Part shown: positions 10,454 through 12,227 of the stretch, piece by piece | How positions within the stretch are numbered: the first letter of the stretch is position 1 | Layout: the number at the start of each line of letters is the position of its first letter | Made by a program: the position numbers and the translations under genes | The notes under the pieces: model-generated | Told to the model about the DNA's origin: nothing | Databases searched by the model: none | Seen by the model: only the letters and a program-made list of their open reading frames with translations | Assembly: GCA_017437045.1 (NCBI GenBank) | Contig: JAFSBY010000015.1 | Span: forward strand, 23,768 to 87,767 | DNA from: Alistipes sp. | GTDB lineage: Bacteria > Bacteroidota > Bacteroidia > Bacteroidales > Rikenellaceae | Reading direction: 5' to 3' | DNA length: 64,000 nt

Positions 10454-10582
10454 AAAAAAAACGTATAGCAAGCGAAATTTCTGCGTTACGCTTGGTCGGC
10501 AATTGCTCACATACGTATCAGTATGCTCCGCATTGCCTCCCTGCGCAAGCCTTGAAATTTACACTTGCTATACGTTTTTTTT
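10454..10582. repeat. Large nested hairpin element, copy A
   Basis: The ends are an inverted repeat, AAAAAAACGTATAGCAAG against CTTGCTATACGTTTTTTT. Inside it are nested pairs AAATTTC/GAAATTT, GCTTG/CAAGC, GGCAAT/ATTGCC and an apical CATAC/GTATG. A-run and T-run ends would let it terminate transcription from both sides. A second copy with a related core but different arms lies at 31384-31507. Confidence 0.75.
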
Positions 10583-10660
10583 GTGGCTTTGAGGGAAGGC
10601 GTTCACCTGTCTGCCTTTTTTTCTTAAAAAACCGGCAGAATGGTTTAATCGTACTTATTA

Positions 10661-10691
10661 TTTGTCAGTTTCTTTTTTTTCACTACCTTTG
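10661..10691 (+). promoter_or_regulatory. Bacteroidetes-type promoter of the TIR gene
   Basis: TTTG at 10661-10664 and TACCTTTG at 10684-10691 are separated by 19 bases, which matches the known Bacteroidetes -33/-7 consensus exactly. The TIR gene starts 26 bases downstream. Confidence 0.75.
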
Positions 10692-10717: not shown

Positions 10718-12169
10718 ATGAAATACGATGTATTTATTTCTTGCAAAAGTGAAGATTATAAGTTTGCTCGGCAAATTTATAACTTTCTAACAGGCCCGGA
10801 ATTAAACTATAAAGTATTTCTTGCCGATGCGGAACTGCGTAAAAAAGGAAAGACCTTTTATGGTAAAGTGATCGATGCTGCGCTGGAAGCATCCGATCAT
10901 CTTATTTTGTTTGCATCTAAGGTAGAGTATGTTACTACCGAGTACGTGGAGAATGAGTGGCGTCTATTTTTGGAAGAGCAACGTTCCGGCAATAAAAAAG
11001 GTAATATTGTCACAATCTTGAAAGGCGTTGATACCAAATCTCTGCCGATTAGTTTAAGACACATTCAGTCGATTCCGTTTGACGAATATAAGTCGGTTAT
11101 AGATTTTCTGCCTAAATTTGAAGAGGGAGACGAGGCTTTGGGGCATCGGGAGTCCGATGATGAATCTGCCGAGCTTACTCCTCCCACACCTCCCACTCCT
11201 TCAACCCCAAGCCTGAAAAAATGGTTGTGGATGGTGGCTGCGTTGCTGTTGATTGTGGGTGGTATTTTTGGCGGACGTGCTATTAAAAGCCGTGTGGATG
11301 AGTTGCAGTTTGTTCGAGATAGTCTAAAACAGGCCCAACTCTATCAAGACAGCCTCGAATATGTGCAAGCCGAACGTGCTGCCTTTGTCAAGGATAGCAC
11401 CGACAAAGCCAATGCCGCTGCTCGAAAGGCAGAAGCGAATCGTTTGGCCAAAGAGAAAGCAGAAAAGGAAGAAGCAGAACAAGAACGATTAGCGGCTGAA
11501 AAGGCTGAACGCGAGCGTCTTGCAGCCGAACAAGCCGCCCAAGAGAAGGCCGAAAAGGAGCGTCGTGAGCGCGAAGCGCGTGAGGAAGCCGAAAAGGCGG
11601 AACGCGAACGGTTGGCTCGCGAAGCTGCGAATAAAACCTACAAAGTCGGCGACTACTACAATGTCAATGGCAAAGAGGGCGTGGTCTTCTATGTGGATGA
11701 AACAGGCAAGCATGGGAAAATTGTTAGCATGACGCAATCGAGTGAAATATTGCAATGGTCATCTAATAAGAACGAACAAAAACAGCTGATCGGAGCCTCC
11801 AGTAAGACGAATGGCGCAGCCAATATGCAAGCCGTCCAGCAACGCCCGAATTGGCGCACAGACTATCCTGCCTTTGCCTGGTGTGCTCGGCTGGGTTCGG
11901 GGTGGTATCTGCCCGCTATCGAGGAGCTAAAGTTGTTTACACTGAACGACAGCGTACACGACGCTGTAAATCGTACTTTAGCGGCCAAAGGGGGTACGAA
12001 ATTACCCAACAAGGGAGATCTCGGTAAATACTATTGGTCTTCGACGGAGTATGATTATCAATACTCTGATGGTGCGTTCTGCGCGTGGCTTGTCGATATG
12101 CGCAGTGGCAACACCGGCTACTACGATAGGAGCTTCGACAACTATGTGCGCGCCGTGTCCGCTTTTTAA
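10718..12169 (+). CDS. TIR-domain transmembrane protein with coiled coil and C-type-lectin-like (DUF1566-like) C-terminus
   Basis: A 483-residue protein. Residues 1-135 form a TIR domain: DVFISCKSED opens strand A, and EYVENEW at 75-81 places Glu80 where TIR NAD-cleaving enzymes carry the catalytic Glu. A Pro/Thr linker leads to one membrane helix (about 169-186), then a long Glu/Lys/Ala coiled coil (about 190-305). Residues 307-483 look like the DUF1566/FGE type of C-type-lectin fold, with WYLPAIEEL, YWSSTE and a terminal VRAVSAF. Ligand-binding folds of this kind are common targets of diversity-generating retroelements. The stretch between YWSSTE and the end is rich in Tyr, Asn, Asp and Ser. 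The gene is AT-richer than its neighbours, suggesting transfer. Its role is not known; a defence or sensing receptor is an inference. Confidence 0.8.
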   Translation: MKYDVFISCKSEDYKFARQIYNFLTGPELNYKVFLADAELRKKGKTFYGKVIDAALEASDHLILFASKVEYVTTEYVENEWRLFLEEQRSGNKKGNIVTILKGVDTKSLPISLRHIQSIPFDEYKSVIDFLPKFEEGDEALGHRESDDESAELTPPTPPTPSTPSLKKWLWMVAALLLIVGGIFGGRAIKSRVDELQFVRDSLKQAQLYQDSLEYVQAERAAFVKDSTDKANAAARKAEANRLAKEKAEKEEAEQERLAAEKAERERLAAEQAAQEKAEKERREREAREEAEKAERERLAREAANKTYKVGDYYNVNGKEGVVFYVDETGKHGKIVSMTQSSEILQWSSNKNEQKQLIGASSKTNGAANMQAVQQRPNWRTDYPAFAWCARLGSGWYLPAIEELKLFTLNDSVHDAVNRTLAAKGGTKLPNKGDLGKYYWSSTEYDYQYSDGAFCAWLVDMRSGNTGYYDRSFDNYVRAVSAF

Positions 12170-12227
12170 TCTTTAGGCTTTTAGCTTTTTGCGCAACGTT
12201 ATTTAGGCCGGTAACAACTCCCAATAC

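What the first reader, a model, noticed from the sequence alone, without database searches (positions are those of the whole stretch)
10718..12169. TIR receptor fused to a lectin-like domain that may be a retroelement-diversified target
Seen: an N-terminal TIR domain with a candidate catalytic Glu80, one membrane helix, a 115-residue coiled coil and a DUF1566/C-type-lectin-like end. The last 45 residues are rich in Tyr, Asp, Asn and Ser and close with VRAVSAF and a GC-rich 3' end. Known: DUF1566/FGE-type lectin folds ending in this way are frequent variable-protein folds of diversity-generating retroelements in Bacteroidetes, and TIR domains often cleave NAD in defence. Inference: a surface-sensing receptor with a hypervariable ligand site and a toxic intracellular domain. 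No reverse transcriptase or template repeat is seen in the window, so diversification would have to be in trans.
Basis: partly seen in the sequence, partly recalled or inferred. Interest (0 to 1): 0.75.

Follow-up and report, generated by a model that had tools for sequence, protein, structure and literature searches.

The report
Membrane TIR receptor with retroelement-written tip
A bacterial membrane receptor with a TIR signalling or toxin domain ends in a binding tip that carries the letter-by-letter signature of a hypermutating retroelement, and a matching mutation template was found not in its own genome assembly but on phage-type DNA of other species of its genus.

Summary
Confirmed and extended. 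ORF 10718-12169 is TIR (Glu80), one membrane helix, a coiled-coil-like stretch and an Lcl_C/DUF1566 lectin-like end. Within that end, 12080-12160 (27 codons) is a variable region (VR) of a diversity-generating retroelement (DGR). Six kinase genes of the own genome carry the same tip. Among these seven copies, VR sites that are not template adenines are 96% identical, upstream third codon positions 72%, template-adenine sites 45%. I wrote down the expected template before finding it beside a DGR reverse transcriptase (RT) and Avd on phage-type contigs of the genus; G146's copy is identical at 78 of 81 bases with the same 31 adenines. The window VR differs from it at 16 of 31 adenines and 3 of 50 other sites. 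VR-pattern matches occur in 27 of 180 genus genomes, on kinases, TIRs, a trypsin-like and secreted proteins. No RT and no template was found in the own 92.8%-complete assembly. Best reading: a receptor repertoire diversified in trans by a mobile, phage-type DGR. Ongoing activity, the real donor, and any NADase function are untested.

The parts
10718..12169 (+). whole receptor gene, 483 aa
10730..11083 (+). TIR domain (residues 5-122)
   Evidence: Pfam TIR_2 E 2.4e-12
10955..10957 (+). Glu80 codon, candidate catalytic glutamate
   Evidence: invariant in 10 of 10 aligned TIRs; catalytic role recalled
11216..11284 (+). single membrane helix, about residues 167-189, preceded by KK (N-in topology inferred)
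   Evidence: hydropathy windows starting at residues 165-173 reach 1.6 or more
11285..11626 (+). charged coiled-coil-like stretch
   Evidence: read from the translation; no predictor run; similar stretch in most sister genes
11744..12157 (+). Lcl_C / DUF1566 lectin-like domain (residues 343-480)
   Evidence: Pfam E 1.1e-9
12080..12160 (+). variable region (VR), 27 codons, CAWLVDMRSGNTGYYDRSFDNYVRAVS
   Evidence: 16 of 31 template adenines changed, 3 of 50 other sites changed against the G146 template
12143..12166 (+). IMH-like GC-rich 3' end; carries TCCGCTTTT where the templates carry TCCGAATTT
12173..12180 (+). TTAGGCTT motif past the stop, also after other VRs and the G141 phage VR
   Evidence: this motif or one of three one-base variants in 41 of 54 VR copies; no chance control was run
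10684..10691 (+). TACCTTTG, resembles the Bacteroidota -7 box TAnnTTTG (motif recalled, not from a call)
   Evidence: sequence

Best explanation
It is a single-pass inner-membrane receptor: an N-terminal TIR domain in the cytoplasm, a membrane helix, a long coiled coil in the periplasm, and a C-type-lectin-like (Lcl_C) tip. Twenty-seven codons of the tip are the VR of a DGR. A template repeat (TR) with 31 adenines is copied by an error-prone RT that randomises bases at adenines, and the cDNA replaces the VR of several unlinked genes. The tip therefore varies at up to 17 codons on a fixed scaffold, while the TIR, or a Ser/Thr kinase in sister genes, supplies the output. Shown: domain architecture, change concentrated at template adenines, re-copying of the scaffold, and a matching TR with RT and Avd on phage-type contigs of the genus. 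Inferred: topology, ligand binding, TIR signalling or NADase output, and that the template acted in trans from a mobile phage-type DGR not present in this assembly.
For: (1) The window and six kinase genes of the own genome carry this tip; framework codons are nearly all identical to the third base and variable codons mostly keep C or T at the third base. (2) Over 21 pairs, VR sites other than template adenines are 1010/1050 identical, template-adenine sites 293/651, upstream Lcl_C third positions 1901/2658; the C26 kinase is 43-46% identical to the others at upstream third positions but 46-50 of 50 at VR non-adenine sites, so its VR was re-copied. (3) A template inferred from the VRs was noted, before the template turned up in G141, though after I had seen templates of another DGR class of the genus: G146 78/81 identical, G141 77/81, G151 36/36 up to the contig end, same adenine positions. 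(4) G141 template against the seven copies: adenine sites changed 104/217, others 29/350, Fisher p 4e-27. (5) 51 VRs in 23 genomes (own included; template genomes and G149 left out): adenine sites changed 741/1581, others 180/2550; in the 48 nt outside the search pattern, 49 copies, 426/980 against 116/1372, p 2e-89. Copies are related, so these p-values overstate. (6) TCCGCTTTT in 47 of 55 VRs and TCCGAATTT in none; the two complete templates have GAATTT. (7) Aligned to the G141 phage DNA, own-genome tips match from the VR start to about 26 bases past it, and C26 matches the TR itself best. (8) PHROGs names the phage RT and Avd.
Against: No RT and no template or phage found in the own assembly. 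Of 27 genomes with VR-pattern matches only three hold the all-adenine template; 17 of the other 24 have no RVT_1 match at all, and the one RT of G040 (98% complete, 11 VRs) is not similar to the phage RT. No genome was seen with both template and receptor VRs. The window copy has no perfect-stem hairpin within 110 nt downstream, an element needed for efficient homing in phage BPP-1 (PMC3240598). Two own TIR relatives (C24, C31) and one kinase (C38_11089) do not fit the template. Outliers: G133 21/50 and G206 10/50 non-adenine changes. No strain comparison was possible.
Confidence: 0.8

Rival explanations
1. A complete DGR with this template sits in the cell's own chromosome or plasmid and is merely missing from the assembly; the phage copy is a relative and not the donor.
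For: The assembly is 92.8% complete. In G151 the contig ends inside the template and in G146 a contig end lies a few bases before it, so two of three assemblies break there. Binning of metagenomes tends to lose mobile DNA (general knowledge).
Against: 24 of 27 genomes with VR matches lack the template, among them G040 at 98%; the G141 template adjoins baseplate genes, and G146 and G151 have nearly the same RT and neighbours.
Confidence: 0.4
2. The tips are captured pieces of phage tail genes: host genes recombined with already varied phage VRs and are not written in place.
For: Phage target-gene VRs have the same scaffold, 3' end and TTAGGCTT motif, and homology runs about 26 bases past the VR.
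Against: Homology starts at the VR boundary; the codons just upstream (WSST) differ in DNA. It would need about one capture per gene for about 50 genes.
Confidence: 0.15
3. Ordinary positive selection and gene conversion on a lectin loop, no retroelement.
For: The tips belong to a multi-copy family, and loops of binding domains often vary (general knowledge).
Against: Change concentrated at template adenines with conserved third bases, and a template inferred and then found.
Confidence: 0.02

Closest known systems
DGR targets of Thiohalocapsa PB-PSB1 (PMC10907252; abstract and passages seen)
   Same: Lectin-domain VRs on proteins of which one has CHAT and TIR domains; a kinase domain is named in a figure legend; [quoted passage not shown]
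   Different: There the TR and RT are in the same genome, and targets associate with NACHT or MoxR/vWA systems. Here the TR and RT were found only in other species, on phage-type contigs.
Cyanobacterial kinase-CLec variable proteins and dispersed paralogues (PMC7517822; passages seen)
   Same: Ser/Thr kinase N-terminus grafted on a diversified C-terminal lectin domain, paralogues dispersed in the genome.
   Different: Most are predicted cytosolic; here a membrane helix in the window gene and five of six kinase sisters, with TIR and kinase on the same C-half.
DGR-bearing Bacteroides phages (PMC6199706, start of abstract; Bacteroides phage F2, RT 49% identical)
   Same: A related RT or DGR carried by a phage.
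   Different: Their targets were not examined here; nothing on host receptors in what I saw.
BPP-1 DGR (PMC3240598; abstract and passages seen)
   Same: Adenine-specific VR/TR difference, GC-rich IMH that differs between VR and TR.
   Different: Downstream hairpin not evident at the window copy.

Membership tests
DGR variable protein | VR differs from a TR at template adenines and hardly elsewhere | tested here: met
   16/31 against 3/50 with the G146 TR; seven copies p 4e-27 with the G141 TR. The TR comes from other genomes of the genus
DGR variable protein | RT and TR in the same genome | tested here: inconclusive
   none found in the 92.8%-complete assembly; contig ends lie at the TR in G146 and G151
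DGR variable protein | GC-rich IMH at the VR 3' end, distinct from the TR form | tested here: met
   window and 46 other VRs of 55 read TCCGCTTTT, none TCCGAATTT as in the templates
DGR variable protein | hairpin/cruciform close downstream of VR | tested here: not met
   window copy: no perfect stem of 7 bp or more in 110 nt; 26 of 54 VR copies have one, random stretches 118 of 2000. Needed for efficient homing in BPP-1; not known to be universal
DGR variable protein | C-type lectin fold of the variable domain | tested here: inconclusive
   Lcl_C profile match; structure prediction switched off
DGR variable protein | ongoing diversification between cells or strains | not testable with these tools
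   one genome per species, no reads
TIR NADase / defence effector | TIR domain with the conserved glutamate | tested here: met
   TIR_2 E 2.4e-12; Glu80 invariant in 10 TIRs. The catalytic role of the column is recalled
TIR NADase / defence effector | NAD cleavage or immune activity | not testable with these tools
   no experiment; of two PADLOC matches the one over the TIR is weak, PDC-S66 E 0.0019
NACHT or MoxR/vWA conflict system with a DGR target | NTPase partner genes beside the target | tested here: inconclusive
   adjacent ORFs, read by eye from translations, look like glycoside hydrolases and ribosomal L27/L21 (names recalled); no profile search of neighbours was run

The most novel reading that the evidence does not exclude
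A bacterial genus keeps a dispersed repertoire of receptors (TIR, kinase, protease outputs) whose binding tips are rewritten in trans by DGRs that arrive on its phages: the same template that varies the phage tail-side gene also varies the host's sensors, so host sensing could track phage attachment chemistry without the host keeping its own retroelement.
Probability: 0.4. Interest if true: 0.92.

Novelty: new variant of a known kind. Interest (0 to 1): 0.77.

Why it matters
DGR-varied sensors with TIR or kinase outputs are described from multicellular bacteria, where the retroelement is resident (passages of PMC10907252, PMC7517822). Here a receptor set with membrane helices shares its template with phage-type genes of the same genus, and only 3 of 27 genomes with matches to the VR pattern hold the template. 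A published survey states that its method would not detect remote targets (PMC8144416, passage), so such repertoires may be overlooked. It makes a direct test possible: does a phage DGR rewrite host receptors?

Tried and rejected
Ordinary lectin hypervariability: rejected by the adenine and third-base tests. A template in the own genome: not found with the VR DNA, a VR pattern, or 5,600 bases of the G141 contig. The TIR siblings C24 and C31 and the kinase C38_11089 as further members of this VR set: they do not fit. A small Lcl_C gene, C43:54147, fits less well (18/31 adenines, 7/50 others, one codon gap) and is not counted among the seven. Mutual exclusion of template and receptor VRs as a signal: dropped, as no overlap is expected with p 0.65. 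An all-adenine pattern in IMG/VR: 0 matches; a degenerate one gave 6 contigs, of which two (L190, L191) have the CAW..YVRAVSEF form. A genome-contig scan for named relatives gave two distant loci. PDB sequence search: best E 0.18, nothing usable. Synteny: no amylase or TIR homologue in the first 1,700 bases of 17 relatives' rpmA loci, some of which may be short on that side. Structure prediction: switched off. The counts were 6 bases out of register and are not used; one search replaces them. The IMG/VR row was mis-indexed and is not used; one search gives that template (16/31 adenines, 8/50 others against the window). One search failed because loci were not yet loaded and was rerun.

Full report
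What is there. The ORF at 10718-12169 encodes 483 residues: TIR_2 (5-122), one hydrophobic helix near residue 171, a charged coiled-coil-like stretch, and Lcl_C (343-480). Glu80 is invariant in 10 aligned TIRs. The neighbours look like glycoside hydrolase genes on one side and ribosomal L27/L21 on the other (by eye, names recalled). No TIR or amylase homologue was found on that side of rpmA in loci of 17 relatives, so the gene is probably accessory.

A family with exchangeable heads. The own genome has 18 matches to the protein. Besides the window, six genes carry the same tip: C33:62155, C17:73834, C38:173566, C38:150380, C27:72263 and C26:75328. All six have a kinase-type N-terminus with the HLDxKP motif; five share the membrane helix and coiled coil, C26 lacks both. 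A TIR sibling, C24, shares the helix and coiled coil but not the VR core. In the tip, framework codons are nearly all the same to the third base and variable codons mostly keep C or T there.

The retroelement signature. Over the 21 pairs of the seven copies, upstream Lcl_C third positions are 1901/2658 identical, VR sites that are not template adenines 1010/1050, template-adenine sites 293/651. The C26 gene is the telling case: 43-46% at upstream third positions, 46-50 of 50 at VR non-adenine sites. Its VR must have been re-copied from the same template. That script used my inferred template to part the sites; the G146 and G141 templates have the same 31 adenines.

The template. I noted the expected template, after seeing templates of another DGR class of the genus but before seeing this one. 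A scan of 40 fetched RT loci of the genus for near-repeats that differ at adenines found it in G141: target gene, Avd, TR and RT in a row on an 8.75-kb contig with baseplate-hub genes. G146 has the same TR and RT; G151 has the TR start at a contig end. Identity to the inferred template is 78/81 (G146), 77/81 (G141) and 36/36 (G151). Against the G141 TR the seven own copies are changed at 104/217 adenines and 29/350 other sites; three other own Lcl_C genes do not fit, which serves as a control.

Spread. The VR pattern has 59 matches in 27 of 180 genus genomes, none when read backwards, and among 393 genomes drawn from the order only the own one matches. Of the 59 matches, 58 were in fetched DNA: 3 are templates, 4 are VRs of G141, G151 and G149, and 51 lie in 23 other genomes, the own one included. 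I call these 51 host-side, but short ones such as G043 may be phage genes. Forty-nine of the 51 have at most 6 non-adenine changes; G133 (21/50) and G206 (10/50) do not. Of 39 members with a start codon scanned against Pfam, 39 match Lcl_C, 14 Pkinase, 6 TIR_2, 8 PEGA, 1 trypsin; four of the 39 are from G141, G149 and G151, two of them the same protein.

Cis elements. TCCGCTTTT ends 47 of 55 VRs and TCCGAATTT none, while the G141 and G146 templates have GAATTT. A TTAGGCTT-like motif follows within about 60 nt in 41 of 54 copies, with no chance control. Perfect-stem hairpins lie downstream in 26 of 54, against 118 of 2000 random stretches; many look like terminators, random stretches are not a matched control, and the window copy has none.

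Where is the writer? No RVT_1 match in the own genome; 61 of 180 genus genomes have one. Of the 24 genomes with VR matches but no template, 17 have no RVT_1 match. Of the other seven, the RTs seen in G040, G029 and G003 are not similar to the phage RT; G041 and G149 have other DGR RTs with other repeats; those of G047 and G184 were not fetched. IMG/VR holds related phages, the nearest RT 82% identical, with the same kind of template and VR. This fits a mobile writer acting in trans, but a resident DGR lost in assembly fits too. No genome showed template and receptor VRs together.

Function. Inference only: the coiled coil would hold the tip away from the inner membrane; ligand binding at the variable surface would change the TIR or kinase state inside. 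By analogy with published DGR sensors (PMC10907252, PMC7517822, passages seen) this may be phage or neighbour sensing. Paper searches on DGR with TIR, kinase, host genes, Bacteroides, Bacteroidales, pili or remote targets listed, by title and start of abstract, no report of a phage DGR template matching host receptor genes; the library lacks most subscription papers.

Noticed in passing
window 10454-10583: A 130-bp element with inverted-repeat ends between the amylase and TIR genes; 31 matches in the own genome (self and opposite strand included), so a MITE- or REP-like family.
   Followed up: partly
L035 (own C24:38597-39949), L040 (own C31:30525-31748): Two more TIR-Lcl_C genes that do not fit the template; C24 shares the window's helix and coiled coil and only the last bases of the VR tail, as if frozen or served by another template.
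   Followed up: partly
L038 (own C26:75328): A kinase gene with the same VR tip but without the membrane helix and coiled coil, so its tip would lie elsewhere in the cell.
   Followed up: no
L069, L072, L076, L070, L071, L074 and others: Several other DGR classes in the genus with their own templates and target genes.
   Followed up: no
L079:1-110 (G151:C63): A second template form with the same 3' end but a different core (SWNLNWNNGNLNNNNK) before an RT close to that of G141.
   Followed up: no
L164 (G029): One 887-aa protein with two VRs of this type.
   Followed up: no
L182 (G047): A trypsin-like protease domain fused to the same VR tip.
   Followed up: no
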